NCBI GenBank assembly: GCA_002255575.1
Contig: NCAT01000014.1
Coordinates: 1-64,000, forward strand
Direction: 5' to 3'
DNA: 64,000 nucleotides
Source: Acidocella sp. 20-57-95
Lineage (GTDB): Bacteria > Pseudomonadota > Alphaproteobacteria > Acetobacterales > Acetobacteraceae
The notes under the pieces are model-generated. The model saw only the letters and a list, made by a program, of their open reading frames with translations, ran no database searches and had not been told where the DNA came from. Positions within the stretch are counted from its first letter, which is position 1; each line of letters starts with the position of its first letter. The position numbers and the translations under genes were made by a program. Shown here piece after piece: positions 2 to 17,971 of the stretch.

Positions 2-1244
2 CACGTTGTGGGTGCCGGGCATGACGCCAAGCAGGTGCCGTGGATCCCGTATTACGGCGGCAGCATCATCGGGTCGCAATATTACATCACCGGCGGCATT
101 ACTGAGCTGAATTATAATATCCAGTCCGGCGGCGTGCAGTTCCAGGTTAATCAGCTTGGCCCGAAAGACCGCGTTTATACTGAAGATGTGGGTATCGACC
201 TTGAATTGGTGGATAGCCGTTCGTTGCTGATCGTCAAGTCCGTCAGCCTCGTGAAGCAGCTGACCGGCTATGAAGTTGGTTTCAACATCTTCCAGTTCTT
301 TGGCAACAATCTTTACAACCTGAACATTGGCAACAAGAGCCAGGAGCCCGAGCAGCTTGGTGTGCGCACCTTGCTTGAAGAAGGCGTGTTCCGCCTGGTG
401 GCATATGCCGAAGGTTTGGCCCCAGAGCCTTGCCTTGCTACCGCGACGGGTTGGATTCCGAAGGAAACTGCCGAACAATATTTAGCTGCTGACCGTGCTG
501 GCGCTGCCACCCCGGCGCCGGTTGCGCCGACGGCACCAGCGCCGGTTGCAACCGCCGCCCCGGCTGTTGCCCCACCACCGCCTGTTCCAGCGCCCGCTCC
601 TGCCCCGGCACCGGCTGTGGCCGTTGTTGCGCCTACTCCCGCTCCGGCGCCAGCCCCCGCGCCGGCGCCAGCCGCTGCGCCGGCTAACCCGGTTCCGGCA
701 GCTGACTCTGCTGGCATTGCGGTGCCGACCCCGAATGCGCCGCCGGCGCCGAAGCCGGTTGCTGCCGCCGTCGCGGTGCCAGCTCCCGCCCCGGCCCCCG
801 CCCCAACCCCGGCGCCGCAGGCCGATACTGGCGTGCCGGTTCCAGTCCCGGTGCCAACGCCCGCTCCGGTGCCAACGCCAGCCCCGACCCCGGCTGCTGC
901 GCCGCAGGCTGACAATAGCGGTATGCCGGTACCTGTGCCGGTGCCAGCCCCGACCCCTGCCGCAAGCAATGTATCCACTATGGCGGCTGGCAGTGCCGCG
1001 ACGTTAAATTCCCAAACATCATCTGCGCCGGTGCAAAACGGCCAGATGGAGGCGCCATCTGATCAGTCGAACGTGAAGTTTGACTATGGCGCGACCGATG
1101 TCACCGGTGGTGACATGTCGGCTCTCGACCAGGCTGCCTCAACTGCCCGTCAGCATCCTGTGGACCCCAGACCCGATGTCCGGCACCGCCATTATGGACG
1201 CCTCCGGTTCGCAGAAAATCGCCTTGCTTGTCGTCTCCCCATAA
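2..1244 (+). CDS. CsgG/HfaB-family outer-membrane secretion protein, 5'-partial, probable frameshift
   Basis: The reading frame is open from the window edge, so the N-terminus is missing. The visible part starts inside a CsgG-like domain (YYITGGITELNYNI, then alternating beta-strand segments, VKQLTGYEVG, KSQEPEQLGVRTLLE), as in curli CsgG and Caulobacter holdfast protein HfaB, which form outer-membrane pores for fibre or anchor proteins. After about residue 160 comes a tail of about 160 residues made almost only of Pro, Ala, Val and Thr. The original frame stays open to 1357, but after about 1150 it becomes Arg/His-rich with poor codon use. Shifting by +1 gives a well-coded hydrophobic end (MSGTAIMDASGSQKIALLVV) stopping at 1244, leaving about 100 bp of AT-richer spacer before the next gene. 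I therefore infer a frameshift between about 1150 and 1180, by mutation or sequencing error. It lies directly upstream of the giant repeat protein it probably exports. Confidence 0.72.
506..965 (+). repeat. Pro/Ala-rich low-complexity coding repeat
   Basis: Imperfect short repeats of gcc/ccg/gcg codons encode a run of about 150 residues dominated by Ala-Pro and Val-Pro pairs. The same bases stay open in two other frames, which gives spurious long reading frames on both strands. It probably forms an extended linker on the CsgG/HfaB-like protein. Confidence 0.8.
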
Positions 1245-1346
1245 GGGGGGCGGCAAGTCACTCTAAACTTTACGTAAACTGTTCCGATCAAGCACTTGTT
1301 CCGTTTTATTCACCCCATCTAACTTCTTCAACAAAGGTATACGACA

Positions 1347-4300
1347 ATGAAATATAACGTCTCAAAAACCGCTACCTCGCGCACCGCGCGTCGCGCCGTT
1401 GGCGTTAGCGCCGTCGCGCTGACCGCGATGCTGGGCGCTGCCCCGGCAATGGCCGCCTCCACCACCGATTCACTGTTCGCCACCACCGGTTTTGTGGTGC
1501 TGGGCAACAACGACACCAATAGCGCGCTGATCGCCGCCCAGGTTTCCAATTCAACGGTGAGCAACACGGTTGTTAGCAACCCGATTACGACCGGCAACAC
1601 CAATACGCCGAGCACCTTCTCAGTGACCGGCAACACGCTGTCCACCAGCGCCACCGAAAGCCAAGCAACCAACTCGGTTGACCCGACCACCATCGGCAAC
1701 AGCACCGGTAACGGCATCGCGATCCTTTCTGAGCAGGCCACCACCACCGGTGCGGCTGTTACGGCCACCACCACCAACAACAGCGTTGCCAACAACGTGA
1801 CCAACGCGGTCAGCGCTGATGCGCTGATGCTGTCTGGCAACATGTTGTCTTCCACGGCAACCGTTAACAGCTCAAACAACAGTGTCGCGGGCGACCTGCC
1901 GATCACCTATACCGGCGCTGCTGCTCCTGGTGCCGTTAGCAACACCACTGGCACTGTCGCTAGTGGAACTGCCTCGGGCAACGTGGTTGCCGCGACCAAT
2001 CAGAGCAGTGCTTCGTTCACCAATGGCGCCACCACGTCTGGCGCTTTCACCACCGGCAACACCGTTGGCCAGGATGTGACATCCACCGGCAACGGCACCA
2101 ACACGCTGGGCCTGACCGCACCGGAAAACAACAACGCTGTCACTTCGTTGTTCAATGGCAACAGCGCTGGCAACAGCATCAATTTCTCGCTCACCAATGG
2201 TCAATCCACTGGCGCGCCGAGCCTGAATGGCTCGCTGGTTATTTCGAACCAGCAGGCGAACAACCCAACCACGGCCCCGACCGGCGTTGGTGCCAGCACC
2301 GCCAACAACACCACCAGCAACGTGGTTGATGGCGCGACAGGTTCAACTCTAACCCTGACCGGTGCCACCACCCAGACCGGCAACAGCTTCACCTCGGCTG
2401 CTTATGGCAATAACGTGCCAGCTGGCACCGGCACCACTGGCGGCTCGGGCAACCAGTTGACGCTGGGCGTTAACCTGGCCGGCACTACCACCCCGGCGCG
2501 GAACGCCATTGCGTTCGGCAGTAACGCGATTAACGCAGCGGCTGACCTGCTGCTGGCGAACCAGCAGAGCAACGTCAACCTACCTTTGAGCGCCACCACT
2601 GGCGGTGCCACCACCGCTTCTGCCAACACGCTGGAAACCCTCATTCAGGGTGCCAGTGCGGGTTCAGTATTGGTGGGCAGCAACACATTGTCTTCCACGG
2701 TTGCGGGTAACTTTGCCAGCAACGGCATTGCCACTGCCGCGGGTGCTGCCATCAACAGCATCGCTGGCCTGACCGCCCTTGCCAATGCGCAAGAGCAAGG
2801 CACTGGCTCAAACGTCACCGCCACCACCCAGAACAACCTTGTGCTGGGTGATATTGGTGTTGCAAGCGGTACCTTTACCAACCCAACGGGTGCTGCCGCT
2901 TCTACCGTCACTGTTTCGGCGAACAGCGTCACGTCCACCGCGAATGCGAACTCTGAAGCCAGCGCCGTGAATTTGGCTGCCAGCACCATCGATAACGGTG
3001 TCGCCGGTGCGAATAGCGCTGGTACATTGTCGAACAGCGCTAGTGTTGGCGCAGGCGCTGGGGTGAATAACCAGCAAGTTTCGCAGAGCACCACGGCGGC
3101 CAACACCAGCAACAACACGGCAGAAGCTTTGGTGGCTGATACGGGCACTGGCAGCAACACGCTGACCGTTAGCGGTACCAGCGTTGGTGCAACTACGAAC
3201 AGCAACCTTGCCACCAACAGCTTGACCGAGACGGCCAGCACGGTTGGCGGTTCGGCCGGGGTGCTCAGCATTCAGTTGGCAAACCCAACGGGTGCCACGG
3301 CCTCAAGCGTAACTAACAGCAACAACCTCGTTGAAGCTGCGCTCACCGGCATCGCCACTGGTACGGGCCTGACGAATGACACGCTGGCGGTTTCCGGCAC
3401 GCAAGTTAGCGGGATTGGTGCGGGCAATAATGCCAGCAACAGCCTGAGCATTGCGGCCAGCAACGCCAATAACGGCAATAGCAGCACGCCAAACCTGACT
3501 TCGGTGATCACCGGTGCCGATACGGCCAATGCTGACCTTAGCTTGATGAACACCCAAGCTTCGAGTGGCGCGGTTTCGACCACGCTGAATGCGGATCAGA
3601 TCGCGGCACTGGGCAATGCTGGCAGCACTGCTGGTACGGTAACTGGCTCAACCTTCACCGTTGCCGGCCCGGCCGTGAACGTGCCAACGATGCTGGCGCA
3701 AGCGCTGGAAAACCAGGCCACCAACAGCATTACGGCAACTGGCACCGCCACCTTGTCTGACAGCGTTGGGTTGCTGAACGCACAGAGCAACAACAACGCG
3801 GCTGCCACCGCTAACGCCACGCTCTCCGGCAGTTCAGTGTTGGCTGCGGTTAACGTCAATAGTGGCACGGGTAACCTTTCGGGTGACACAGTTGCCGCCA
3901 CCAACAACTACCTACAGGGACTTTCCGGTGAAAACCTCGCCAACAACAGCTACAGCGTTTCGGCTGGTACTCTGACGCTGGGTGAAACCCCAACGACGGC
4001 TGGCTCCAACGTGACCTTGGCGACGGCCAGCACGACCAACCAGGTTGGCTTTGAAGATGCCCTGTTGAACAACCAGTCGGCCGTGGCTGGTGCCACCACC
4101 TCGGTGACTGGTAACCAGGTGCTGACAGAAGCTGGCAATACCGCTGCCAACTCAACCGTGACCAACAGCACCCTGTCCACCAACAACAACAGCCAAGTTG
4201 CGGCGGCCTTCGGGAACCAAGCGGCTGATGCTGGTTCAGTTGCTGGCAACACCCTTAATAACGGTGGCACCTACGTGCCGGCGGCGGATGTGACCAGCAT

Positions 4301-6791
4301 CCAGACCACCAGCGCGGCGGGTCCGGTGAGCGCCAACATCACTGGCTCAACGACTGTGCCGTCTTTTGAAACCGCTATTCTGGGCACCGGCTTGGTGACA
4401 GGCTCGACGCTGGCTGTGAATGCCAACACTGACAATGCGGTGGCTGAAGGCAACCTCGGCACCAATACGCTGAACGTGACCAGCACCAACATCACGGATG
4501 TTGCCACCGCCGCACCAGTTAACTTGGTGACCGGCCTGACCACAGCGAATGCCCTGTTGGCATTCGATGTGCAGAACATCCAGAATGGTGCCGCGACGGT
4601 GACAGCTTCACAGAACGTGACCAACGACCTGCTGGCCGTTGGCGGCGCTGTGACCACCTCAACGCTGACCGCGAACAACAACGCGTTTGATGTGTCATCG
4701 CTGAACAACTATGCCACCAACGCGCTGACCTTCGGTTCGGGCACTACCCCGGTTGACAGCATCACCTCCTCGGCTGGCGTGCAGAACTACCAGAACGCCT
4801 CCAGCACTGTGACTGCCACGCTGGGTTCGGCTGGTACGCCAGGGACGGCTACGGTGCCGGGTTTTGCTGTCACTTACAGCGTGACCAACACCACAGGGAA
4901 TGGCACGGTCAGTGGCACGATCATCAACAATGGCACCCAGTTCCAAGTCAGCACTGACCCCGTGACGTTCAATGTCGGAGGTCTGACGGCACAGCAGTTG
5001 ACAGCGTTTGAAGCACTGTTCGGGAATGCGGGTACCTACAATAATGGGACGTACACGCTTGCGGTGGGTACTTATAATCTTTCAACGACGTCGGTTTTCG
5101 GTACTACCAACTCCACAGTATATCTGGCCAGCGGTGGGGGCAGTGTCACAAATGCAAACCTGAGTTTGCCCGCCATTCAGGGCACCGCGGCGGTACCGGC
5201 TAACCCAACAGTTGAGATTACGGTTGGTAGTGCAGCGACGCCGGCAACATCAAGCATCACCAACAGCACGCTTACGGAAAATACCAACAGCTTTAACGCC
5301 ACGGCGGTTGCCAATACCGCAACCAACAGCAACACCATCACCGCGACCACAGTGGCTGGCGGTGCTGACATTGCCAGCGCCACTGCCACCTCCAGCGCGA
5401 CCACCGCTGGCGTGGTGACGGCAACGGCGGCTTATGCAACCTCGAACGACCAGATCGCTTCCGCTGCGGTGACCGCGTCGGCAAACGGTGAAGTGGCGAT
5501 CAACCCGACCGCCACGGGTGCGACGATCAGCAACGATACGCTGAGCGTTTCTAACAACACCCAGGTTGCTGAAGCGCAAGCGAATGTGGGCACAAACTCG
5601 CTCTCGATCGCGGCAAATAACACCGGCGCGGCCGGCACCAGCGGCACCACCGGTGCGGTTGTGTCCGACCAGTCCGGCACCAGCAGCGTGACGGCCGATG
5701 CTGGCGTGGTTGCTACCACGGGCACTTCAACCTACGGGCTGATCATCACGGCGCCGGGCGCGATTGCGAACTCCACCCTGACCATGAGCGGCAACAGCAC
5801 ATTGTCTCAGGCTGAAGTGAACAACGCTACCAACACGCTCTCAGCGTCCGCAGCCAACCTGCTCACCGCCAACACGGCGCAGACCAACGCGGCAGCCAGC
5901 GTGGTTGGTGGGGCTTCGGCCACCGCTGACTACACTGTGACCAACCTGCAGTCCGCCACGGGCGGCACGGTGACCGCGAATGCCGCAACGTCGATCTCCA
6001 ACACCGACGTGGCAGCCTCTAACGGTCTCTCGGCCAGCACTGTGACGATTAGCGGCAACAAGACCAAGGCGCAGGCGGTTGCCAATATTGGCAATGACAC
6101 GCTGAACCTGACCGGTGACGTGGTTACCGCAACTGGCGCGATCAGCAGCGGCCAGACCAACAGCGACACTGTGAACGCTGCGGGCCTGACCAACATTGGC
6201 TTCAACCTGACTGGTGGCGCCGGTGGCGCCGCTGGCCCGGCCGGGGCAACCAACTCGACGATTACGATCTACAACAACGCTCTGAACGTGCTGGGTGAAG
6301 GCAACCAGGTTTCCAACGTCCTGAACGCTTCCGCCTCAGCGGCTTACGGTGCGCAAACCTCAGCGAACAGCACTGCGACGACCGACAACGCCACCTTTGC
6401 GGTGTTGAACAACCAGAATAACTCTGGTGCGGTTTCTGCCCTGGCTGTTAGCGCACCAACCACCAGCTACGCGGTGGCTCTGAACGGTGGGGCAAGCACC
6501 ACACCGGTTAGCAACACCGCAGTGACTGTTTCCTACAACAACACCACGGCGACTGCTTTCGGTAACAATGCGACCAACACGATAAACGCAACCGCCCTGA
6601 ACTCCGGTAACGCGACGCTGGCCCTGCAGAACACGCAGGTTAACAGCGGCAACGTGACCGCGAATGTCATCGGCGCGACGGTGGCTTCCAGCCTTGGCCT
6701 GCCGGGCGTGTCCGGCTCCAGCGTTGGTATCGCCAGCAACGTTATCGGCGCAACGGCGGTTGGCAACATCTCTGTCAACTCAGTCAAGTAA
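1347..6791 (+). CDS. giant secreted Asn/Thr/Ala/Ser-rich repeat protein (amyloid/adhesin-like)
   Basis: An 1814-residue protein with a clear signal peptide (basic start, hydrophobic stretch, cleavage after APAMA near residue 36). The rest is built from degenerate repeats of about 60-90 residues. Their core reads roughly S-T-L-x-V-S-x-N-x4-A-x-A-x2-N-x2-T-N-x-L-x-V/I, for example near residues 525, 600, 680, 1045, 1310, 1410, 1485 and 1580. Between cores sit Q-x-N-S-G-x-V-T-A segments. Charged residues are very rare and I saw no Cys or Trp. A less repetitive Gly/Tyr-containing insert lies around residues 1180-1285. The composition (many Asn and Gln, regular beta-strand spacing) and the CsgG/HfaB-like gene just upstream suggest a surface fibre or holdfast-anchor protein, perhaps a functional analogue of HfaD or curlin. 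No catalytic domain is visible. A terminator follows at 6819. Confidence 0.8.
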   Translation: MKYNVSKTATSRTARRAVGVSAVALTAMLGAAPAMAASTTDSLFATTGFVVLGNNDTNSALIAAQVSNSTVSNTVVSNPITTGNTNTPSTFSVTGNTLSTSATESQATNSVDPTTIGNSTGNGIAILSEQATTTGAAVTATTTNNSVANNVTNAVSADALMLSGNMLSSTATVNSSNNSVAGDLPITYTGAAAPGAVSNTTGTVASGTASGNVVAATNQSSASFTNGATTSGAFTTGNTVGQDVTSTGNGTNTLGLTAPENNNAVTSLFNGNSAGNSINFSLTNGQSTGAPSLNGSLVISNQQANNPTTAPTGVGASTANNTTSNVVDGATGSTLTLTGATTQTGNSFTSAAYGNNVPAGTGTTGGSGNQLTLGVNLAGTTTPARNAIAFGSNAINAAADLLLANQQSNVNLPLSATTGGATTASANTLETLIQGASAGSVLVGSNTLSSTVAGNFASNGIATAAGAAINSIAGLTALANAQEQGTGSNVTATTQNNLVLGDIGVASGTFTNPTGAAASTVTVSANSVTSTANANSEASAVNLAASTIDNGVAGANSAGTLSNSASVGAGAGVNNQQVSQSTTAANTSNNTAEALVADTGTGSNTLTVSGTSVGATTNSNLATNSLTETASTVGGSAGVLSIQLANPTGATASSVTNSNNLVEAALTGIATGTGLTNDTLAVSGTQVSGIGAGNNASNSLSIAASNANNGNSSTPNLTSVITGADTANADLSLMNTQASSGAVSTTLNADQIAALGNAGSTAGTVTGSTFTVAGPAVNVPTMLAQALENQATNSITATGTATLSDSVGLLNAQSNNNAAATANATLSGSSVLAAVNVNSGTGNLSGDTVAATNNYLQGLSGENLANNSYSVSAGTLTLGETPTTAGSNVTLATASTTNQVGFEDALLNNQSAVAGATTSVTGNQVLTEAGNTAANSTVTNSTLSTNNNSQVAAAFGNQAADAGSVAGNTLNNGGTYVPAADVTSIQTTSAAGPVSANITGSTTVPSFETAILGTGLVTGSTLAVNANTDNAVAEGNLGTNTLNVTSTNITDVATAAPVNLVTGLTTANALLAFDVQNIQNGAATVTASQNVTNDLLAVGGAVTTSTLTANNNAFDVSSLNNYATNALTFGSGTTPVDSITSSAGVQNYQNASSTVTATLGSAGTPGTATVPGFAVTYSVTNTTGNGTVSGTIINNGTQFQVSTDPVTFNVGGLTAQQLTAFEALFGNAGTYNNGTYTLAVGTYNLSTTSVFGTTNSTVYLASGGGSVTNANLSLPAIQGTAAVPANPTVEITVGSAATPATSSITNSTLTENTNSFNATAVANTATNSNTITATTVAGGADIASATATSSATTAGVVTATAAYATSNDQIASAAVTASANGEVAINPTATGATISNDTLSVSNNTQVAEAQANVGTNSLSIAANNTGAAGTSGTTGAVVSDQSGTSSVTADAGVVATTGTSTYGLIITAPGAIANSTLTMSGNSTLSQAEVNNATNTLSASAANLLTANTAQTNAAASVVGGASATADYTVTNLQSATGGTVTANAATSISNTDVAASNGLSASTVTISGNKTKAQAVANIGNDTLNLTGDVVTATGAISSGQTNSDTVNAAGLTNIGFNLTGGAGGAAGPAGATNSTITIYNNALNVLGEGNQVSNVLNASASAAYGAQTSANSTATTDNATFAVLNNQNNSGAVSALAVSAPTTSYAVALNGGASTTPVSNTAVTVSYNNTTATAFGNNATNTINATALNSGNATLALQNTQVNSGNVTANVIGATVASSLGLPGVSGSSVGIASNVIGATAVGNISVNSVK

Positions 6792-6818
6792 GCCTAACGC
6801 TAATACGACGGCTAAATT

Positions 6819-6849
6819 GGGGGAGAGCCTGTGGCTCTCCCCTTTTTTT
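6819..6849 (+). terminator. intrinsic terminator after the giant repeat protein
   Basis: A perfect GGGGAGAGCC / GGCTCTCCCC stem with a 3-nt loop is followed by seven T residues. It sits 27 bp after the stop codon and separates the repeat-protein transcript from the next gene. Confidence 0.9.
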
Positions 6850-6908
6850 GAAACGAGTGGTATGAGCCGGGACCAAATATTTTCCGGCCAAAACAGGAGT
6901 TGATTTAG

Positions 6909-7586
6909 ATGAAAAAACATTCTTTTGCCGCAACGGCATGGCTGCTGGGTTGTGGCCTGTTGGGGGCAACGCTGGCCCACCCGGCTTTGGCGGCTGATAC
7001 CAAGCATTCATTTGCGGTCCATGGCATTGGCGCCGTGGGGTGCGCGGATTTGATCAAGGGCCTGACGCCGGGCGATGCCAAGACCATGACGCCGGACCAG
7101 TTGAAGCAGCAAAATTCTGACCAGGCGGTTATCCGCATGTCTCTGGGTTCATGGCTGCTTGGCTATGTGAGCGAAATAAACCGGGTGCAGGCCGGCGCTT
7201 ATGACGTGACGCCGGTGCAGCAGGAAGACGCGCTGATTAATATGGTGGCTGGCGTTTGCGCGAAGCACCCCGATGCGCGCGTTGAAACGGTGGCGGATGT
7301 GGTGTTCACGTCTCTTGCCAAGGCCAAGGTTCCCTCTGAATCGCCGGAAGTGAAGGCAAGCGCTGGCAACAATGCCACGGTGTTGCGCCAATCGACCCTG
7401 GTGCAGTTGGAAAAGACGCTGGTTTCTGAGAAGCTGTTGAAAGAAGCCGACGCAAACGGAAAATACGGCCCGGCTGTGCAGGCAGCTTTGGTGAAATTCC
7501 AGACCGCGCAGAAATTGCCAGTCACGGGTTTGCCTGACCCGGCGACCGTGATCCGCGCTCTGGTGGGATTACCAGCGCAGAAGTAA
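6909..7586 (+). CDS. secreted protein with C-terminal peptidoglycan-binding domain
   Basis: 225 residues. A signal peptide (basic start, hydrophobic core, cleavage after PALA near residue 29) precedes an uncharacterised domain of about 100 residues. This has two Cys (VGCADL and GVCAKH), a YVSEINR segment and a helical look, and recalls HdeA- or Rap1a-type small periplasmic domains without a firm match. Residues about 160-225 fit a peptidoglycan_binding_1 domain (LVQLEKTLVSEKLL...GKYGPAVQAALVKFQTAQ...VTGLPDPAT). A good ribosome site (AGGAG at 6895-6899) supports the start. The neighbours suggest a role in anchoring or assembling the surface fibre in the envelope; that role is inference. Confidence 0.75.
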   Translation: MKKHSFAATAWLLGCGLLGATLAHPALAADTKHSFAVHGIGAVGCADLIKGLTPGDAKTMTPDQLKQQNSDQAVIRMSLGSWLLGYVSEINRVQAGAYDVTPVQQEDALINMVAGVCAKHPDARVETVADVVFTSLAKAKVPSESPEVKASAGNNATVLRQSTLVQLEKTLVSEKLLKEADANGKYGPAVQAALVKFQTAQKLPVTGLPDPATVIRALVGLPAQK

Positions 7587-7602
7587 GTTTACGTTCCGCA
7601 AC

Positions 7603-7639
7603 AAAAAACCCGCCTCACATACATGAGGCGGGTTTTTTT
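7603..7639 (+). terminator. intrinsic terminator closing the fibre locus
   Basis: The stem CCCGCCTCA / TGAGGCGGG has a 6-nt loop, with an A-run before it and seven T after it, so it can act on both strands. It lies just outside the left end of the genomic island. Confidence 0.9.
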
Positions 7640-7648
7640 GTAATATGG

Positions 7649-7694
7649 TGGTGCCGTCCGCCGGAATCGAACCGGCGACCTACTGATTACGAAT
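7649..7694. repeat. left attachment site (46-bp direct repeat of tRNA-Thr 3' end)
   Basis: These 46 bases are identical to 17896-17941, the 3' part of the tRNA-Thr(CGT) gene including the T-arm and part of the anticodon arm. Similarity stops inside the anticodon region, so this is not a tRNA gene but the duplicated crossover site left by integration. A tyrosine integrase gene follows at 8198. Confidence 0.93.
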
Positions 7695-7848
7695 TAGGGA
7701 ATCATATCGTCGGACACTCAAAATAAGCCCCGACAACAAGTTGTGAAATAAATAATCCTTGCATATTGCTTGCTCTATTTTAGACCTACTTATATATTGT
7801 GTTTGTGGTGCTCATATTGTGTCATGAGTATCCCCAAATATCTGGCGC

Positions 7849-7872
7849 AATTAGGCCCAGATTAGGCCCAGA
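7849..7872 (+). promoter_or_regulatory. left pair of TTAGGCCCA repeats, possible integrase arm sites
   Basis: Two direct copies of TTAGGCCCAG start 11 bp apart. The 24-bp block matches 17828-17851 with one mismatch, at the other end of the island. Paired short repeats just inside both ends are typical of arm-type binding sites of tyrosine integrases or excisionase sites; the assignment is inference. The block also precedes the ribosome site of the gene at 7885. Confidence 0.6.
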
Positions 7873-7884
7873 AAGGCAAACACA

Positions 7885-8139
7885 ATGATCGACAACTCAA
7901 ATAAATCGACGGTTCAGGACGTGGCTTTACTGTGCGGGCAGGCTCTAGAGCCGGGTATGCACACGGGGGCGCTCGCCGAGTTACTGGCTGGCATTGACGA
8001 GCCGCTCACAGGCTTTACCGCCGAGGATATGGTTGAGCCAATGGCGGAAGAAGTGGCGTCTCTGCACCGGCAGGCCACCGGGCGGGAATGGCCGCATGTG
8101 ACTGCGGAAGAAGTGAAGGCCGTCCTGGTGGCGGCTTAA
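7885..8139 (+). CDS. small hypothetical island protein
   Basis: An 84-residue acidic protein, first gene inside the left end of the island, with no family I recognise. It is rich in Ala, Glu and Leu and looks helical. The start ATG has AGAAAGG about 9 bases upstream. It lies directly upstream of the integrase on the same strand, so a role in recombination control (for example an excisionase-like accessory) is possible but unsupported by any motif. Confidence 0.5.
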   Translation: MIDNSNKSTVQDVALLCGQALEPGMHTGALAELLAGIDEPLTGFTAEDMVEPMAEEVASLHRQATGREWPHVTAEEVKAVLVAA

Positions 8140-8156
8140 AGCTCATTCACAAAAGA

Positions 8157-8184
8157 GGCGGGGGATGGCTGTTGATCCCCCGCC
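8157..8184 (+). promoter_or_regulatory. perfect 10-bp inverted repeat upstream of the integrase
   Basis: GGCGGGGGAT and ATCCCCCGCC are separated by 8 bases. There is no T-run, so it is not a classic terminator. It overlaps an alternative upstream ATG (8165) of the integrase and ends 13 bp before the preferred start, so it could hide the ribosome site or act as an operator. Confidence 0.55.
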
Positions 8185-8197
8185 GCGGGGGTGCGAA

Positions 8198-9562
8198 ATG
8201 GCAAAGCGGGCAGAGAAGCGGGTCAGTTTAACCGCGAAATTAGTTGACAAGTTAGAGTGTGCGCCCGGGCGGACCGAGACTGTGTTTTGGGACTCTGAGC
8301 GGCCTGGGCTTGGCCTGCGGTGTCGGGCGGGCGGGGGGAAGGCCTGGGTGGTGCGTTACACGTTCCAGGGGCGGCAGAGGAAGGCCGCTCTCGGTGATGT
8401 GGATACTGTGGCGCTAGAGCGGGCGCGCATAGAGGCGACGCGAATTATGGGCGGGGCTATAACCGGTCATGATGTGGTTGCAGCAAAACACGCAATCAGA
8501 GACGCTGACACCATCGGGGAGTTGATTGCCGACTATCTCAAAGACGCTGAGCGCCGTCTTAAACCTAGCACGCTACTGGACTTGAGGCGGCACCTAGAGC
8601 GGCACGCCAAGCCTCTGCATGGGTTAAAGGTTGTCGAGCGCACAAGAGTTGCCCGATTGATTGACCAAGTCCGCCAGGGTGGTGGGGTGCCCCGTCCGGC
8701 AGAAGCTAAAGCCTTGAGGGCCAGTCTCTCGGCCTTGTTCTCATGGGCTATCGGGTGTGGGCGGTACGATCAGGCTAACCCGGTCCTGAATATCCCAGCG
8801 GGCAAGCCTGTGGTCAGAGACCGGGTGCTTACTAAGGATGAAATCAAATTGTTCTGGCAGGCAACTGATGACGGCACGGACGCGCACCGGGTTATTCGCT
8901 TAATGTTGCTCACAGGCCAGCGTGAGAGTGAGGTCGGGGGGATGCGGTGGAGCGAGCTTTCTCGGGAGGGTGATTTAGTAATTTGGACCATCCCGGCAGA
9001 GAGAAGCAAAAACAAGCGTGAGCATGTGGTGCCACTAACTCCACTCGCGGCGGAGCATCTGCCGCCCCGTCCAGGCAGTTTATTTGACGCTGCGGGGGTA
9101 GAGCGCCCGATATTTGGCCGGCGGAAAGCCAGTGACAGCACTCGGACGCGCAAGAACATCAGGACGCGCACTACTGGCCGTTTTGGCTTCTCTGCGTGGT
9201 CAAGGACAAAGCGTGAGGTCGATAAGGCCATGCTGGAGGCGCTCCACAAGTCTTTTGTAAAAGAGCACGGCAAAGAGCCTTCTCTCGGCGAAGCCAAAAT
9301 AAAACCTTGGCGGTGGCACGATCTACGCCGCACAGTAGCAACGTGCATGAATGATATCGGCATTGAGCCACATATTGTTGAAGCAATCTTAAATCATCAC
9401 AGCGGCAGCCGGGGTGGTGTGGCAGGTGTGTATAATCATTCAACGTATCATAATCAGAAAATAACAGCGCTTCGTGCTTATGAAAATTATATTAGCAAAC
9501 TTGTGCTAAAGTCTGAACGTGATGATTTATCAAACGTAGTAGTGTTGCGTTTAGCGACGTAA
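8198..9562 (+). CDS. int: P4-type tyrosine site-specific integrase
   Basis: 454 residues from the preferred ATG at 8198; an in-frame ATG at 8165 lies in a strong hairpin. The N-terminus has the DUF4102-like arm-binding region (VFWDSERPGLGLR, then WVVRYTFQGRQRKAALGD). A core-binding SAM-like domain spans about residues 95-200. The catalytic domain holds the expected residues: Arg in TGQRESEVGGM, Lys in the ERSKNKREH loop, HxxR in WHDLRRTVAT, His in LNHHSG and Tyr in GVYNHSTY. It should catalyse integration and excision at the 46-bp tRNA-Thr repeat. The catalytic set looks complete, so the protein is probably active. Confidence 0.95.
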   Translation: MAKRAEKRVSLTAKLVDKLECAPGRTETVFWDSERPGLGLRCRAGGGKAWVVRYTFQGRQRKAALGDVDTVALERARIEATRIMGGAITGHDVVAAKHAIRDADTIGELIADYLKDAERRLKPSTLLDLRRHLERHAKPLHGLKVVERTRVARLIDQVRQGGGVPRPAEAKALRASLSALFSWAIGCGRYDQANPVLNIPAGKPVVRDRVLTKDEIKLFWQATDDGTDAHRVIRLMLLTGQRESEVGGMRWSELSREGDLVIWTIPAERSKNKREHVVPLTPLAAEHLPPRPGSLFDAAGVERPIFGRRKASDSTRTRKNIRTRTTGRFGFSAWSRTKREVDKAMLEALHKSFVKEHGKEPSLGEAKIKPWRWHDLRRTVATCMNDIGIEPHIVEAILNHHSGSRGGVAGVYNHSTYHNQKITALRAYENYISKLVLKSERDDLSNVVVLRLAT

Positions 9563-9705
9563 TCATTTCTATTTTACATCACTCAATTATATGTCTCTCA
9601 AAAACAACAGTAATTTACTACATCTTTTTATGTAAACTAGTTAACAGAAAAAATAATTGTTGAAAATTTCTAACGGTGTGGGTTAATAAGTTTCAGGTGT
9701 ATTCA

Positions 9706-9936
9706 ATGAGGTTTACCGTGAATCTTATGACCGAGGCCGAAGTCCGCGATTTCCTTAGAATTTCGCGTTCATCAATGAGGCGGATATTGAAACAAGGTAA
9801 TTCATTGCCAAGAATTCAAATATCAGATCGCCGGTTTATGTTTGACAGAGCAGATGTCGAGGCTTTTTTGGCGTCTAAGCCTAAAGGGTTTTTCAACACT
9901 CTAAAATTAGAGCAGCCTCCACGTAAGGCTGCATAA
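9706..9936 (+). CDS. AlpA/excisionase-like helix-turn-helix protein
   Basis: 76 residues from ATG 9706 (a GTG at 9676 would add 10). The pattern LMTEAEVRDFLRISRSSM, then LPRIQISDRRFMFDRADVEAFL, is the winged-helix excisionase/AlpA (HTH_17) layout, in which the last part selects the wing and helix. Such proteins in P4-like islands control integrase expression or act as excisionases. It sits between integrase and primase on the same strand in clearly AT-rich DNA and is followed by a terminator-like hairpin at 9940. Confidence 0.75.
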   Translation: MRFTVNLMTEAEVRDFLRISRSSMRRILKQGNSLPRIQISDRRFMFDRADVEAFLASKPKGFFNTLKLEQPPRKAA

Positions 9937-9939
9937 AAA

Positions 9940-9964
9940 ACCCGGCCACATGCAATGGCCGGGT
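9940..9964 (+). terminator. hairpin after the AlpA-like gene
   Basis: The stem ACCCGGCCA / TGGCCGGGT has a 7-nt loop and starts 3 bp after the stop codon. An A-run precedes it and only a short T-rich tract follows, so termination is more convincing for the minus strand. Confidence 0.6.
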
Positions 9965-10021
9965 AAGTTTAATTCGAAATAAACACGGCAATAGCCGGAT
10001 ATCACAAAGAAATTATAAGCT

Positions 10022-12406
10022 ATGACTGCAACTTGTTCAACTCAAGAATTCCTTGAGACAATTGTACCGCCCGGCTCCAGCGTCGTCATCGGTGTGTATG
10101 ACCCTGTCGAGCAGAGACTGAAACATAAATTCCACCCCACCGCCAAGCAGGCTGCCGCGCAGGCTGCGTATCTCCTCAAGCTCAATGCGACGATCTATTT
10201 CGGCTGCGCCGGGTTCGGCCCCCGCCAGGGCGGTCGCAAGGGCGAAAACGTCACCGCTGTCGGGGCGTTGTGGTGTGATCTCGATGTCGGCGAGAGCAAG
10301 CCCTACAAGACCAAACGACAGGCTGCAGAGGCGCTGGTTAGTTTCTACAAGGGCGTCGGCCTACCCCAGCCCATGATCGTCGATAGCGGCTACGGTATCC
10401 ACGCCTACTGGCTGCTTGCTGAGCCAGTGTCGGCGGCTGAGTGGAAGCCTGTGGCGCGGGCGCTCAAGGCTGCGATGGTGGCCTGGGGGTTGCAGGCCGA
10501 TCCCAAGCGCACGGCTGACGTAGCCAGCGTCCTGCGTCCTGTTGGGACGATGAATTTCAAAGACCCAGGAAACCCTAAGCCGGTCAAGTTGGTGTTAGCA
10601 TCTGCTGAACGCTGGCCGCTAACAGAGTATGCCCGGCTACTCGGCGCTGACGAGCCGGATGATCTGGGCACTGTGCTTCCCGCCGGCCAGGCGCGGGTTG
10701 ATAACTCCGACCTCACCGGTGGCGTTGAGCCGCCACCCCCAGCCGACCCGGAAGCCGTCATGGCGCAGTGTGCCCAGCTACGGGCGCTGCGGGATACCCA
10801 GGGGAACATCGGCTACCCGGAGTGGTATGCCTGCCTGGGTGTGCTGGCCTATTGCGAGGGCGGCGATGATCTGGCCCATGAGCTATCCTCCGGTCATCCC
10901 AAATACAGCGCGGCACAGACCCAGCGGTTCCTCGATGACTGGCGGCGGATGACCGGGGCCGCGACGTGCCAGCACTTCAAGGATGTGAACCCGGCCACCT
11001 GTGCGGGCTGCACCCATGCAGGGAAGTGTCCCGTCACCGGCACGCGGTTAACTCAAATAAATTCTGCAAGGACGACATCTCTTGCAGCGCCTCTACAATC
11101 CCCGGACATTATCCCGCTATCGCAAGCCAAATCGATCATGTCTGAGAGTGATGCGCTGGTGTTTATGAACGCCCGCTATGGTTGGTGCAATCAGTGGGGG
11201 AATGGTAACGGCACTTATATAGAAGCCGGTACGAATAGGCTCCCGTGCCCTGTGGAGGGGCGCACGATGCTGGAGGCCGTAAAGCATTTAAGGGTTCTTA
11301 CGATAGATAAATCAGGCACCGAGAAACCTGTGCCTATTGGCCCTTGGTGGCAAAACCATATCGACCGCCGGATTTTTGACCGGGCTATCTATGACCCCGA
11401 GCAGAAGCATACTCGTAATAATGAGGTCACACTTCCATTGTGGACAGGTTTCGCCGTGACTGAGCGCCCCGGAACCTGGTCTAAGATGCGGAGGCATCTT
11501 CGAGATGTCTGGTGCAATGGCGATAAAGAGCTGTTTCGCTATGTGGTTCAGTGGATGGCCTATGCGATACAACACCCCGGCACGAACCCCGGCACTGTGC
11601 TGGTTGTTAAATCTGCCCGCGAGGGGTCAGGAAAAACGATGGGGGCAAATTGGCTTGCTAAGATATTTGGCAGCCATGCCTATGGGGCGAATACGGCTGA
11701 GCAAGTAACTGGTCGTTTTAACGATCATCTTGAACGAGTGTCTCTCTTGGTTGTGAACGAGCCGCCCTTTGCAGGCAGCAAAGAAGTTCAAAACAAGCTA
11801 AAATCTTTAATCACAGAAAGCAGTATATCAATCGAGCGCAAGTTCGGCGGGTCGTATATGGCCGATAACAATCTACACATTATTATGACGACGAATGAGG
11901 AGTGGGCTGTCAATGCCGGTTCTGAAGCGCGGCGTTATGTCATATTAGAAGTAAACGATAAACGTGTCGGTGACACTGCATACTTTAACTCGTTAGCTGC
12001 GGAAGCTGATAGTGGCGGCATTGAAGCGATGTTTTGGTTTCTCAAACATTTATCACTCCGCAAGTTTAATCCACGCACTATCCCAATCAATCAAGGGTTA
12101 CGCAAACAACAAATGCAGAGCTTGAGCGTTCTACACAAGTGGGGCTTTGCGCTGTGTGACGATCCTGCATTAGCCCACCTTCCATATTTTCAGTTTGGGC
12201 AGTGGGCGAGTTCTGCTGATCTCTTTAAGGCGATGCAAGATTTTGCAAGTGCAGGCAGACATCGTCCGGCAGACCAACACAGCTTCGTTGAATTCTTGGC
12301 CTTAATAGGCGCAACTAACCAGCGTAAAAATGTCGGGCGGGGATGGGTGCTACCCGACGAAAACACAGTTCGAGCAGCAGTCACAAAACTGGCGGGCATT
12401 CGATAA
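10022..12406 (+). CDS. primase-polymerase/superfamily 3-like helicase replication protein
   Basis: 794 residues. The N-terminal part looks like an archaeo-eukaryotic primase-polymerase: GALWCDLDVGE gives the DxD metal site, DSGYGIHAYWLL the SGxGxHxYW motif, and SVLRPVGTMNFK the third motif. Around residues 315-340 a Cys/His cluster (CQHF...CAGC...GKCP) may bind zinc. The C-terminal half is a DUF5906/phage NrS-1-type helicase: Walker A SAREGSGKTMG, Walker B-like LLVVNEPP, sensor IIMTTNEE and a likely arginine finger in EARRYVILE. Such proteins both prime and unwind for phage, satellite or plasmid replication. The repeats just downstream (12427-12696) look like an origin, so the island may replicate by itself after excision. 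Confidence 0.85.
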   Translation: MTATCSTQEFLETIVPPGSSVVIGVYDPVEQRLKHKFHPTAKQAAAQAAYLLKLNATIYFGCAGFGPRQGGRKGENVTAVGALWCDLDVGESKPYKTKRQAAEALVSFYKGVGLPQPMIVDSGYGIHAYWLLAEPVSAAEWKPVARALKAAMVAWGLQADPKRTADVASVLRPVGTMNFKDPGNPKPVKLVLASAERWPLTEYARLLGADEPDDLGTVLPAGQARVDNSDLTGGVEPPPPADPEAVMAQCAQLRALRDTQGNIGYPEWYACLGVLAYCEGGDDLAHELSSGHPKYSAAQTQRFLDDWRRMTGAATCQHFKDVNPATCAGCTHAGKCPVTGTRLTQINSARTTSLAAPLQSPDIIPLSQAKSIMSESDALVFMNARYGWCNQWGNGNGTYIEAGTNRLPCPVEGRTMLEAVKHLRVLTIDKSGTEKPVPIGPWWQNHIDRRIFDRAIYDPEQKHTRNNEVTLPLWTGFAVTERPGTWSKMRRHLRDVWCNGDKELFRYVVQWMAYAIQHPGTNPGTVLVVKSAREGSGKTMGANWLAKIFGSHAYGANTAEQVTGRFNDHLERVSLLVVNEPPFAGSKEVQNKLKSLITESSISIERKFGGSYMADNNLHIIMTTNEEWAVNAGSEARRYVILEVNDKRVGDTAYFNSLAAEADSGGIEAMFWFLKHLSLRKFNPRTIPINQGLRKQQMQSLSVLHKWGFALCDDPALAHLPYFQFGQWASSADLFKAMQDFASAGRHRPADQHSFVEFLALIGATNQRKNVGRGWVLPDENTVRAAVTKLAGIR

Positions 12407-12723
12407 ACATGACCCTAAAACCCCAACATGACGGGGCATGTCGGCTGTATGTCGCTTCATACCGGCATGAAAAAATGCAGTTAAAATCTACATCTTTGTC
12501 GATCATGACGGGGGTGACGGCATTTTTGGCAAAACTCTATATATTCCCTCTTTACTGTATATCCATATACACCCTCTCTCCTCTTATCATGATATTAAAT
12601 TAAGTGTCATAGGTGTCATGGATAGAAAAAACATAAATAAACCAAGGCTTTCGACCATGACACCCCCCCGTCATGGGGGGGACATGCCCCGTCATGCCTC
12701 CACCCACACTCGCGGAGCCGGTA
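12407..12723 (+). other. candidate replication origin with iteron-like repeats
   Basis: This gene-free stretch follows the replication protein. CATGACGGGGCATG at 12427-12440 recurs as an exact inverted copy at 12683-12696, with a further CATGACGGGG at 12505-12514 and a CATGAC at 12656. A C7/G7 inverted repeat lies at 12663-12681. The middle (about 12530-12650) is strongly AT-rich, as expected for an unwinding element. Repeats plus AT-rich core next to a primase-helicase is the usual plan of a satellite or plasmid origin; function is inferred. Confidence 0.5.
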
Positions 12724-13398
12724 ATGCAGAATAGTGCTACAGCAAAAAGTCGATCAATGCAGGGTAATGATACGCGCCTGACAGCCACCATTTCACGGTT
12801 AAAGTTGCTTGGGCCGTCAAACCTTGTAATGCCTCCAGCATTGGGTGCAGGCGCAAAAACTTTTGCACATACTTATCCCTACAAATGGCGAGTAAACAAG
12901 TTGTTTGCGGGTGTGGATTCAAAAACAAACAATGCGTGGTGTAATATCAGTCACAAGACGATCTTAGATGATGCTTGGCGCGACAAGATAATTATGTCGT
13001 TTCAATCAACGCAGCAATTGTTATTGGCTGATATTATCTGTGACCTTAGACGGCCTACAAACAAAAGTGTGACACGCCATACGTTTATTATGGATAATAT
13101 GAATGTAACACTGTGTCGATTAAACTGGAAACCGCTTTATGCAATCGAGCGTGGTATAGGACTTAAATTTCGCGTCAACGATGTGCAGAATGTATATGAT
13201 TACCTAAACCCCTTCTACGGCTTGGCTTTTGCTGCCTTCTGGGTGCCGTATAAACCGGCGAAAGATCACTTTAATCCGTTAGCAGTATTTGAAAACTATG
13301 TCGCGGAAACGATCAAAGACAGCGCAAAAACCCCCGCCACAGAGCGTATGAGCTTGCTGGCAGCATATTACTCATCAAACCTTGTCAGCCAACCCTAA
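12724..13398 (+). CDS. hypothetical island protein
   Basis: 224 residues from ATG 12724, which has GGAG 9 bases upstream; an upstream ATG at 12673 lies in the G-rich hairpin and is less likely. I recognise no family. The protein is mixed alpha/beta, with a basic Ser/Thr-rich first 40 residues, a KTILDDAWRDKIIMSF segment and a Tyr/Phe-rich part around residues 150-190. Codon use is AT-richer than in the host genes. The next gene on the other strand overlaps its 3' end by 14 bp. Confidence 0.6.
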   Translation: MQNSATAKSRSMQGNDTRLTATISRLKLLGPSNLVMPPALGAGAKTFAHTYPYKWRVNKLFAGVDSKTNNAWCNISHKTILDDAWRDKIIMSFQSTQQLLLADIICDLRRPTNKSVTRHTFIMDNMNVTLCRLNWKPLYAIERGIGLKFRVNDVQNVYDYLNPFYGLAFAAFWVPYKPAKDHFNPLAVFENYVAETIKDSAKTPATERMSLLAAYYSSNLVSQP

Positions 13399-14122
13399 AC
13401 CCCGGCACCACAAGATCACGAACACCGGCATTGGTCGGCGGCGCGGGCTGTGGAAGCCTCGCAAGTAAAGATCCAGTTTGAACCGCTGGGCGTCGAACAC
13501 TTGAAGGGCCGCTCTCCTCGACATCTACCACATCGTCACCAGTCACGTTTTCGGGCGTAGCGCGGCCTACAATACTGATCAGTGGCTTGTCCGAGTGTAT
13601 TGGGGCGGCGTCGATGGTGTGGGCGCTGCTCGGGAGGCTTGAGGTGGACGGAAGGTTGATAATGATTGTAGCCGTATTCGCTGGGTCGGGGGGCTGTTGA
13701 GCACCTATGCCCGCGAGCTTGGCGATGGTCTCGATACCCTTGTGAAGCTGAGCACTGGCGGCGGTGAGGGCACCTACAGCGCCGTCCGTGGCAGCCTTCT
13801 CTGCGGCACTGTCGAGGCGATGGAGAGAGCGCTGCATCATGCTGAGAAGGTCGGCCAAGCCGAGAGCCTCTGATGGTGTTGGGGTGGCTGTGCCGGCTGC
13901 AATTGCTTTGGCTCGTTTATTTGCCTGGATGATCGGGGCTTGAGGTCGAACCGCAGCGGCAGCCGCCGCCACGCGGGGGGCTAGGCAGTTCGTCCGGTGG
14001 CGGCCCATGGCTGACTTGCTCAGGCCGTATTTAGCTGCGGTGGGAATCAGTGTGCCCCCGGCCATCAGATCATTGTCGATCTCGGTGCGGCGGGCGTCTA
14101 AACAGATGGTGCAGACGGGCAT
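13385..14122 (-). CDS. zinc-finger/HTH phage-type hypothetical protein
   Basis: 245 residues from the ATG at 14122; an upstream start at 14143 is possible. The N-terminus (VCTICLDARRTEIDNDLMAG, then IPTAAKYGLSKSAMGRHRTNCL) has the CxxC - EID - HTH - RHxxxxL layout seen in many phage and island proteins of unknown function, thought to bind DNA. The middle is helical and Ala-rich, the C-terminal 100 residues are Pro/Ser/Thr-rich and probably disordered. It converges on and overlaps the preceding gene by 14 bp. Confidence 0.65.
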   Translation of the reverse strand: MPVCTICLDARRTEIDNDLMAGGTLIPTAAKYGLSKSAMGRHRTNCLAPRVAAAAAAVRPQAPIIQANKRAKAIAAGTATPTPSEALGLADLLSMMQRSLHRLDSAAEKAATDGAVGALTAASAQLHKGIETIAKLAGIGAQQPPDPANTATIIINLPSTSSLPSSAHTIDAAPIHSDKPLISIVGRATPENVTGDDVVDVEESGPSSVRRPAVQTGSLLARLPQPAPPTNAGVRDLVVPGFRVG

Positions 14123-14243
14123 GAGTAACCCGTTACCACACAATTCCCACGGTTCCCATAAAAAATTCCCGTGTGCCTGGCGAACCTTTTATGCCTATAA
14201 AACCACTTCAGCATTAAGCGTGGCTAACGTTGTCAATTATTAA

Positions 14244-14251
14244 GGATTTGC
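14244..14251. repeat. left 8-bp target-site duplication of the IS element
   Basis: GGATTTGC directly abuts the left inverted repeat and recurs directly after the right one at 17366-17373. An 8-9 bp duplication is typical of the IS1 family. Confidence 0.9.
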
Positions 14252-14260
14252 GGTAGTGTC

Positions 14261-15157
14261 TCAGTTTGAAATCTTAGGCCGTTCGGCCTTCTTATAAGTC
14301 GCCTGGCGGTTTGGCTTAGCGGCCTGTGCATCGATCAGCGCCACCACGTCCTCCATGCTCCAAAGCGTCTTGCTGACACCCGCTGCCATAGCTGGCGAGC
14401 AACGCAGCGTCTTGTGGGTACGGACAAAATTATACCAGGTCGTATATAGCGCAACCATGTGAGCGTGGTTCTCTGCCTTCTTGCTGAAGGCGTTGGTCAG
14501 CCGGGTGAACCGGCGCATCAACATATGCATAGTGAGGTTCTGGCGCTCCACGTAAGAGGTGGAGACATGTTTTTTGCTGGGGTTGCCCTCGATCCGGGTT
14601 TTCTTGATGCCCGTGCATTCGGCGGGGCTGTAGCGGCCAGCGGGGCCGGGCGCTTCGCCGTAAAGTTTCACCAGCATAGCGTAGTCGACGTTCGCCCCGA
14701 AAGCCCCCTCTACGGCATCCAAATAGGCTTTATGGCCGTCCGGTGTCAGTTGAACCCGGTTAGCCAAGCGGCTCGCCACATTTTGCATGAACTCATTGGC
14801 ATAGCCAGCATCGCGGCCGCCGATTAGGTACGACACGATCAGTTTGCTATCGGCATCCAAAGCGGTCCACGTCCACACGTCGCCAGCCTCTTCCGGAGCA
14901 GCCTTGGCCGTCGCCACGTTCTTTTGCTTTGCGTAGCAGAAGGACCAGATTTCATCGGCCTGGATGCGCTTGGAAGCCACATTCCGCACCGTGCGGTCGT
15001 GGTGTTCCGCGCAGGCTTTCCCGGCATCCACAAGCAGTCCGGACACCGTGTTGATGCTTACATCCGCAATGCGAGAGATCGACCGCATGGACGACCCATC
15101 ACAGAGCATGGGGAGGATTTGGACGCGCTTGGCGAGGGGGAGCTTGTTCATACTCAT
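14261..15157 (-). CDS. IS1-family DDE transposase
   Basis: 298 residues from ATG 15157 (another ATG at 15151; the open frame runs on to 15256). An N-terminal HTH (KLPLAKRVQILPMLCDGSSM, SISRIADVSINTVSGLLVDAG) precedes the DDE domain: Asp in IQADEIWSFCY, Asp in ALDADSKLIVSYL, Glu in SYVERQNLTMHMLMRRFTRL. The last motif with TNAFSKKAENH is characteristic of this IS1-related group. It should move the whole 3.1-kb unit. The stop codon falls inside the left terminal repeat. Confidence 0.93.
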   Translation of the reverse strand: MSMNKLPLAKRVQILPMLCDGSSMRSISRIADVSINTVSGLLVDAGKACAEHHDRTVRNVASKRIQADEIWSFCYAKQKNVATAKAAPEEAGDVWTWTALDADSKLIVSYLIGGRDAGYANEFMQNVASRLANRVQLTPDGHKAYLDAVEGAFGANVDYAMLVKLYGEAPGPAGRYSPAECTGIKKTRIEGNPSKKHVSTSYVERQNLTMHMLMRRFTRLTNAFSKKAENHAHMVALYTTWYNFVRTHKTLRCSPAMAAGVSKTLWSMEDVVALIDAQAAKPNRQATYKKAERPKISN

Positions 15158-15428
15158 GTTGCATGAACTTTTATGCTTAGCGTCAAGTATTTCTTCTCGT
15201 TTTGCTTTTGCCGTTTTTCTATTTAAAGTGAAATAATAATACACGGGAGCAGTCATTTGGCGGTGCTTAGGCGAGCAAACTTAAGCCGAGATGTGAATTG
15301 CGCTGCGAGGCGAAACATCTTTTGAGTCAGCAGACGCATTTTCGCGCAAAAGCCTTTCGCCCATTCATATTCATAATGGGCGGTCTGATTCGCATTGCGC
15401 GCTTGCGTTTATGCGGAAATTGACTTAT

Positions 15429-16850: not shown

Positions 16851-17064
16851 ACCACCGTTTAGCCGCCGCCTTCTTAGCAATCTCTGCCCGTCGCTCTGGC
16901 GTCATGCCAGCAGCGCGGGCCTTTCCGCCCAGCTTGCCAAGGGTCGCGGCGGCGCTGGCCGGGGTAGTTACGTCATCTTCCTCGCCCGTCGCCATCCGCA
17001 TGACCTTCACGGCGTTGCCGACCACGTCGGCGGGGCGTTTCTCGCCTTTAGGACCCTTTGGCAT
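16840..17064 (-). CDS. small basic KRPADVVGNAV-type protein, IS passenger
   Basis: 74 residues, Lys/Arg/Ala-rich. The pattern MPKGPKGEKRPADVVGNAVK...GKLGGKARAAGMTPERRAEI occurs in many small alphaproteobacterial proteins that are labelled only hypothetical or RNA-binding. The Ala/Lys-rich C-terminus (AKKAAAKRW) suggests nucleic-acid contact. Its start overlaps the end of the gene at 17048 by 17 bp, so the two are coupled. Function unknown. Confidence 0.65.
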   Translation of the reverse strand: MPKGPKGEKRPADVVGNAVKVMRMATGEEDDVTTPASAAATLGKLGGKARAAGMTPERRAEIAKKAAAKRWSKT

Positions 17065-17373: not shown

Positions 17374-17423
17374 TAATTGATTGTACAATAACTGAGCAAT
17401 GTCGAGTTACGAGGCAACCGACC

Positions 17424-17895: not shown

Positions 17896-17971
<76 letters not shown>

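What the first reader, a model, noticed from the sequence alone, without database searches (positions are those of the whole stretch)
2..7586. CsgG/HfaB-like exporter, 1814-residue repeat protein and wall-binding protein: a probable surface-fibre system
The combination is similar in plan to curli (CsgG/CsgA) and the Caulobacter holdfast anchor (HfaB/HfaD), but the fibre protein is far bigger, free of Cys, almost uncharged and repeat-built, and a peptidoglycan-binding protein follows. It may be a large functional amyloid or stalk-free anchor.
Basis: partly seen in the sequence, partly recalled or inferred. Interest (0 to 1): 0.62.

Follow-up and report, generated by a model that had tools for sequence, protein, structure and literature searches.

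The report
Giant HfaD-like CsgG-exported surface protein
An acid-loving bacterium carries a gene set, shared with a few other alphaproteobacteria, that probably pushes a very long, almost uncharged repeat protein through a curli-type outer-membrane pore and ties it to the cell wall, a larger relative of the anchor that Caulobacter uses to stick to surfaces.

Summary
The genes are real. The window begins inside a CsgG/HfaB-like exporter (2-1357, 5' half off the contig). An intact 1814-codon ORF follows (1347-6791; signal peptide, no Cys, 3.7% charged, 16 detectable copies of a 27-residue motif), then a PG_binding_1 protein (6909-7586). The genome is an Acidocella. Relatives show the full locus: a small two-Cys Asn/Gly-rich protein, a CsgG/HfaB lipoprotein with an OmpA-like C-terminal domain, the giant, and the wall-binding protein. 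All four genes recur together in another alphaproteobacterial family. Every giant found by class survey lies in a CsgG-positive genome; the giant-linked exporters form their own clade. It is not curli: the curlin motif is at chance and Pfam finds none. It is not HfaD by the NCBIfam model, but the giant's C-terminal profile matches that of HfaD above every decoy. Repeat units keep their order between close orthologues, so this is a fixed-length molecule. Best reading: a new HfaABD-like variant that exports and anchors a giant surface protein. Secretion and anchoring are inferred; amyloid character is untested. In the window, the exporter's OmpA-like domain has lost about 131 bp and is frameshifted, so this copy may be impaired or mis-assembled.

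The parts
2..1357 (+). 3' part of a CsgG/HfaB-like outer-membrane exporter gene: CsgG domain (window residues about 20-143), then a long Pro/Ala-rich linker. The lipoprotein signal and N-terminal half lie off the contig. The last ~65 codons are out of frame.
   Evidence: Pfam CsgG and NCBIfam HfaB; contig start; intact relatives of 521-563 aa
1161..1244 (+). Remnant of the exporter's OmpA-like C-terminal end, readable in another frame (WTPDPMSGTAIMDASGSQKIALLVVSP*); about 131 bp present in relatives is missing just upstream.
   Evidence: comparison with L014/L020 DNA; OmpA domain over the Pfam cut-off only in the f39 homologue
1347..6791 (+). Giant HfaD-like repeat protein, 1814 aa, Sec signal peptide (about residues 1-36), 169.6 kDa mature, no Cys, 3.7% charged residues.
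   Evidence: orthologues of 1665-2169 aa in Acidocella and another Acetobacteraceae genus
1611..6785 (+). Repeat region: 16 detectable copies of the motif STLTVSGNTVSATATGNTATNTLSVAA, typically 66-102 residues apart; larger gaps are about two or more units (copies undetected). The last ~65 residues align with the C-terminus of HfaD.
   Evidence: repeat HMM against shuffles; collinear units; profile comparison with HfaD
6819..6843 (+). Strong intrinsic-terminator-like hairpin directly after the giant gene, before the wall-binding gene.
   Evidence: conserved position in L014, L015, L020 and, with different sequence, L033
6909..7586 (+). Periplasmic wall-binding protein, 225 aa: signal peptide, helical two-Cys N-terminal domain (a weak HdeA/HdeB-like match in one homologue), C-terminal PG_binding_1 (residues 165-214, 7401-7550).

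Best explanation
This is an HfaABD-like surface system, a new variant of the CsgG-dependent kind. The HfaB-like lipoprotein forms a CsgG-type pore in the outer membrane. The giant HfaD-like repeat protein crosses the inner membrane by Sec, stays unfolded in the periplasm, leaves through the pore and folds outside into an all-beta repeat rod. The small two-Cys protein made from the gene before the exporter is probably a minor cap, base or nucleator, in the place of HfaA. The OmpA-like domain on the exporter and the separate PG_binding_1 protein tie pore and giant to peptidoglycan, so that the giant works as a tether or adhesive brush on the cell, not as a shed fibre. Shown: gene content, conservation, co-occurrence, repeats, peptidoglycan-binding domains. 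Inferred: secretion route, surface location, fold, adhesion.
For: CsgG domain with best NCBIfam score to HfaB (106.7 bits on the window fragment; 200 bits in L020, 199 in L033; cut-off 300). Four-gene locus complete in Acidocella L014 and L015, in G363/L033, and in another family, G747/L069. Exporter-giant pairs also in G233, G448, G575 and family f13. Giants in 6 of 385 class genomes, all six CsgG-positive, where CsgG is in 67 of 385 (genomes not independent). Two-Cys protein in 3 of 337 class genomes, all three with a repeat protein of this family and an HfaB-like exporter. Giant-linked exporters form one clade, 95/95 support. OmpA domain in the f39 exporter, 74.3 bits; weak Pal-like hit at the same place in Acidocella. 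PG_binding_1. No Cys in the mature giants of Acetobacteraceae, f39 and f13. C-terminus resembles HfaD: hhalign score 23.3 against a maximum of 13.9 in 60 column-shuffled decoys. In Caulobacter, surface location of HfaA and HfaD depends on HfaB (PMC6707917).
Against: No experiment. hhalign's own probability for the HfaD match is only 13% (E 0.002), and shuffled columns are a lenient control for a repetitive profile. No NCBIfam HfaD hit in any giant-bearing genome tested. AlphaFold gave no usable model of the giant. The window's own exporter is truncated and frameshifted at the OmpA-like end and lacks its 5' half in this assembly, so the copy may be impaired. The wall-binding gene was not seen beside the giant in G233, G448 or G575. 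In f39 most giant paralogues lie away from the exporter.
Confidence: 0.68

Rival explanations
1. A true curli system with an oversized CsgA-type functional amyloid as the fibre.
For: The exporter is CsgG-family; the giant is Asn-rich with alternating polar and small hydrophobic residues and enriched for N-x-Psi-x-Psi-x-A (31 against 16.9 in shuffles).
Against: Curlin core motif N-x-Psi-x-Psi-x-Q at chance (2 against 3.1); no Pfam curlin hit at E<=1 in the window giant; spacing of 66-102 residues, not about 23 (curlin length from PMC10192328); no CsgE or CsgF among the operon proteins scanned.
Confidence: 0.1
2. A monomeric giant adhesin or S-layer-like coat protein that uses the pore but does not polymerise; the peptidoglycan domains stabilise the pore only.
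For: Fixed length and conserved order of units in close orthologues (rho 0.97-0.98 among Acidocella, 1.00 between f39 G448_L064 and G575_L083) suggest a defined rod, not a fibre subunit of variable repeat number. HfaD is described as having limited similarity to S-layer proteins (PMC6707917).
Against: The minor two-Cys protein and, in part of the genomes, the PG-binding protein are conserved with it, which suggests an assembly of several parts.
Confidence: 0.3
3. The giant is the passenger of another secretion pathway (autotransporter, two-partner, type I) and the CsgG gene is a chance neighbour.
For: In f39 genomes several giants are not next to the exporter.
Against: No autotransporter barrel, TPS or RTX family hit at E<=1 in the window giant; exporter-giant adjacency recurs in Acetobacteraceae, f39 and f13, and every giant-bearing genome of the class survey has CsgG.
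Confidence: 0.07
4. In this strain the locus is decaying: the exporter has lost its anchor domain and the system no longer works, although intact elsewhere in the genus.
For: 131 bp shorter than L014 with a frameshift; only 3 of 25 Acidocella genomes have the locus; a mobile element is inserted directly downstream.
Against: The giant ORF is open over 1814 codons and the CsgG domain is 88% identical to relatives. The lesion lies about 1.2 kb from a contig end and could be an assembly error.
Confidence: 0.3

Closest known systems
Caulobacter holdfast anchor HfaABD
   Same: Gene order minor protein - CsgG/HfaB lipoprotein - repeat protein; exporter scores best to HfaB; repeat-protein C-terminus resembles HfaD in register.
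   Different: Giant of about 1000-2170 aa instead of about 400-450; NCBIfam HfaD model does not match; minor protein has two invariant Cys; OmpA-like domain on the exporter; extra PG_binding_1 protein; exporter in a separate clade.
Curli (CsgA/CsgB/CsgG)
   Same: CsgG-family exporter; Asn-rich beta-type repeats with alternating residues.
   Different: No curlin motif above chance, no curlin family match, units of about 66-102 residues in place of about 23, fixed order of units in close orthologues.
Second CsgG/HfaB locus type in other Acetobacteraceae (L036-L039)
   Same: HfaB-like exporter beside small curlin-like proteins, OmpA-type proteins and large repeat proteins.
   Different: Separate exporter branch; giants lack the motif signature; IalB-domain protein instead of the PG_binding_1 partner.
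OmpA/Pal peptidoglycan-associated proteins
   Same: C-terminal domain of the f39 exporter is OmpA; Acidocella region is weakly Pal-like.
   Different: Fused behind a CsgG secretion pore.

Membership tests
CsgG/HfaB exporter family | CsgG domain over Pfam cut-off | tested here: met
   33.5 bits against 20.8 in the window fragment; 51.6 in intact L020
CsgG/HfaB exporter family | N-terminal lipoprotein signal | tested here: inconclusive
   Off the contig in the window; relatives show a lipobox-like VSGC near the N-terminus by eye
HfaB (NCBIfam NF037935 equivalog) | Score at or above 300 bits | tested here: not met
   200 bits in intact L020, 199 in L033, against 376.7 for the HfaB of G033
HfaD (NCBIfam NF037936) | Score at or above 100 bits | tested here: not met
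   No hit to the giant or in its genome
HfaD | Remote profile similarity, C-terminus to C-terminus | tested here: inconclusive
   hhalign E 0.002, 63 columns, above 60 of 60 shuffled decoys, but probability only 13%
Curlin (CsgA/CsgB) | Curlin repeat family match | tested here: not met
   No Pfam hit at E<=1
Curlin (CsgA/CsgB) | N-x-Psi-x-Psi-x-Q motifs above chance | tested here: not met
   2 against 3.1 expected
Curli system | CsgE/CsgF accessory proteins | not tested
   None among the operon proteins scanned; no genome-wide search made
Functional amyloid | Cross-beta polymer, SDS resistance, dye binding | not testable with these tools
   Needs purified protein
Autotransporter / two-partner / RTX | Barrel, TPS or RTX domain | tested here: not met
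   No Pfam hit at E<=1 in the window giant; none at E<=0.1 in two f39 giants
Peptidoglycan-binding protein (PG_binding_1) | Domain over cut-off | tested here: met
   35.1 bits against 23; the family profile matches solved SleB domains
Holdfast system | Polysaccharide synthesis and export genes (hfs) | not tested
   Not searched

The most novel reading that the evidence does not exclude
A distinct class of CsgG-dependent surface structure: a single secreted chain of about 170 kDa with a fixed number and order of repeat units, charge-depleted in acidophiles, exported by a pore that carries its own peptidoglycan anchor and held by a dedicated wall-binding partner; a length-defined tether rather than a polymerising amyloid.
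Probability: 0.35. Interest if true: 0.72.

Novelty: new variant of a known kind. Interest (0 to 1): 0.55.

Why it matters
If true, CsgG-type pores handle substrates several times larger than curlins or HfaD, and a secretion pore has been fused to a peptidoglycan anchor, joining export and attachment in one protein. The holdfast anchor would then be one branch of a broader group of CsgG-linked repeat proteins in alphaproteobacteria that need not depend on a stalk. It would also give a candidate for surface attachment or aggregation in acidophilic Acidocella, and a natural charge-poor repeat protein suited to low pH.

Tried and rejected
AlphaFold2 on the C-terminal 525 residues of the giant with three sequences: pLDDT 39, all strand, not interpretable. 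AlphaFold2 on the wall-binding protein: pLDDT 58, helical; Foldseek in PDB gave no match with E<=0.001. PDB sequence search with the giant profile: no match at E<=1. HdeA/HdeB as the N-terminal domain of the wall-binding protein: only 15 bits, below cut-off 22, in one homologue, and not found in the PDB search; left as a lead. The missing 5' half of the exporter and the two-Cys gene: not found elsewhere in the assembly. A first search with PF16823 was a wrong accession (tPilZ) and says nothing. Literature: no description found of a CsgG-OmpA fusion or of this locus in the held library; absence there is weak evidence. Curli, autotransporter and chance adjacency were considered and rejected as above.
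Full report
OBSERVATION. The three ORFs exist as described. ORF 2-1357 carries the second half of a CsgG domain (Pfam 33.5 bits; NCBIfam HfaB 106.7 bits) followed by a Pro/Ala-rich stretch. The window is the start of contig C20 of a 3.04-Mb, 102-contig assembly, so the gene is cut by the contig end. ORF 1347-6791 has 1814 codons: signal peptide, then 1778 residues, 169.6 kDa, 65 charged residues, no Cys, His or Trp. ORF 6909-7586 ends in PG_binding_1.

ORGANISM. A genome scan with the exporter fragment returned two named records, both Acidocella metagenome-assembled genomes at 88-89% identity: L020 (Acidocella sp. 35-58-6) and L021, which is the same contig as L014. Two other congeners in the genus sample (G009, G017) have the exporter at 88%; with the window's own genome, 3 of 25 genus genomes carry it.

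THE WHOLE LOCUS. L014 and L015 hold the intact order: 231/235-aa Asn/Gly-rich secreted protein; 563/521-aa exporter; 2169/1741-aa giant; wall-binding protein. L020 has the same order, its first gene cut by the contig end. The first gene has two invariant Cys and a conserved ALNSxQTN...STAC end in most of eight homologues; it was not found in the window's own assembly. The same four genes occur in G363/L033, another genus of the family, and in G747/L069 of a different family, f39 (the exporter there is 7354-8730 minus). G233/L035 has the first three; G205/L034 has them with the giant cut by the contig end. G575/L083 has two-Cys gene, exporter and giant. In G448/L082 the order is two-Cys gene, exporter, a 402-aa protein, giant. 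In f13 genomes G1006 and G988 an HfaB-like exporter lies beside giants of about 1000 aa. G488/L070 has the two-Cys gene and exporter with a 404-aa repeat protein nearby on the other strand.

EXPORTER. Intact Acidocella exporters match CsgG at 51.6 bits and HfaB at 200 bits, below the HfaB equivalog cut-off of 300. The f39 exporter has a full OmpA domain, 74.3 bits; the Acidocella C-terminal region is only weakly Pal-like (13.9 bits), so 'OmpA-like' there rests on position and weak similarity. In a tree of 24 exporters the giant-linked ones form one clade (95/95) apart from HfaB proper and from the second Acetobacteraceae type. The program warned of long branches joining deeper in the tree, and the f13 exporters were not in it.

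LESION. In the window the exporter sequence runs from ...QHPV straight to WTPDP... in another frame. L014 has 131 bp more there, and 131 is not a multiple of three. Either the anchor domain is lost in this strain or the assembly is wrong near its contig end. I cannot decide.

GIANT. A 27-residue motif (consensus about STLTVSGNTVSATATGNTATNTLSVAA) was built from the giants themselves. It is found 16 times in the window protein and 16-20 times in most other giants, with 0-0.7 hits in shuffles; the spacing is mostly 66-110 residues with a median near 80-90. Because the model came from these sequences, the shuffles show only that composition does not explain the repeats. Units are collinear: best-matching units keep their order between the window protein and L014 (rho 0.97), L020 (0.98), G363 (0.87) and G448_L062 (0.74), but not clearly with G575_L083 (0.39) or G233 (0.19). 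So length and order are conserved among close relatives, unlike the variable repeat number reported for CsgA (PMC3521004).

COMPOSITION. Acetobacteraceae giants are charge-poor (1.9-6.3% K+R+D+E, the Acidocella ones 2.6-4.5%), f39 giants acidic (about 11-16% charged); mature giants lack Cys in all except the short G488 protein, which has two. Lack of Cys fits export of an unfolded chain. Low charge fits life at low pH, but that link is inference.

FAMILY TESTS. Not curli: motif N-x-Psi-x-Psi-x-Q 2 against 3.1 expected, no Pfam curlin. Not HfaD by NCBIfam. Remote similarity: the C-terminal 110 residues of 14 giants against three HfaD-type proteins gave score 23.3, E 0.002, 63 columns, in register; decoys reached at most 13.9 and the reversed profile 11.4. 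Probability was 13%, so homology is suggested, not shown.

DISTRIBUTION. A C-terminal giant profile matched 6 of 385 genomes of the class. All six have CsgG, against 67 of 385 overall. These come from three families, so they are not independent. A later profile matched 3 of 398 genomes of the phylum, all in this class. The two-Cys protein matched 3 of 337, all with repeat proteins of this family. In Acetobacteraceae 13 of 397 genomes had any match to the exporter profile, eight of them weak or of the second type.

REGULATION. A strong hairpin with a T-run lies directly after the giant gene (6819-6843), at the same place in L014, L015 and L020, and with different sequence in L033. It suggests that the wall-binding protein is made at a lower level by read-through, or from its own promoter. 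This is inference.

MECHANISM. By analogy with HfaABD, where HfaB is needed for surface location of HfaA and HfaD (PMC6707917): Sec export, periplasmic holding, passage through the CsgG-type pore, folding outside, and anchoring by OmpA-like and PG_binding_1 domains. Each step after gene content is inferred. A tether or adhesive coat is more likely than a shed amyloid fibre, because of the double peptidoglycan link and the fixed unit order.

VERDICT. A real, conserved, apparently undescribed variant of the HfaABD/CsgG kind.

Noticed in passing
window 7649-17941: Integrative element at tRNA-Thr(CGT): 46-bp perfect direct repeats at 7649-7694 and 17896-17941 (the tRNA 3' end), integrase 8165-9562, VapE/DUF5906 protein 10022-12406. 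In L015 and L020 the tRNA follows the wall-binding gene directly.
   Followed up: partly
L036, L037, L038, L039: Other Acetobacteraceae carry a different CsgG/HfaB locus: small curlin-like protein, long exporter, IalB-domain protein, Gly-rich protein and, in L037 and L038, large repeat proteins of 781 (cut) to 1030 aa.
   Followed up: partly
L062, L063, L064, L065, L066 (genome G448): One genome holds five giant paralogues of nearly constant length (1680-1819 aa), only one of them next to the exporter.
   Followed up: partly
L069 506-1225 (-): Wall-binding homologue with a sub-threshold HdeA/HdeB match (15 bits, cut-off 22), hinting at a periplasmic acid-chaperone-like domain.
   Followed up: partly
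window 14261-15256 (-): ORF that looks like an IS1-type transposase by eye, inside the integrative element.
   Followed up: no
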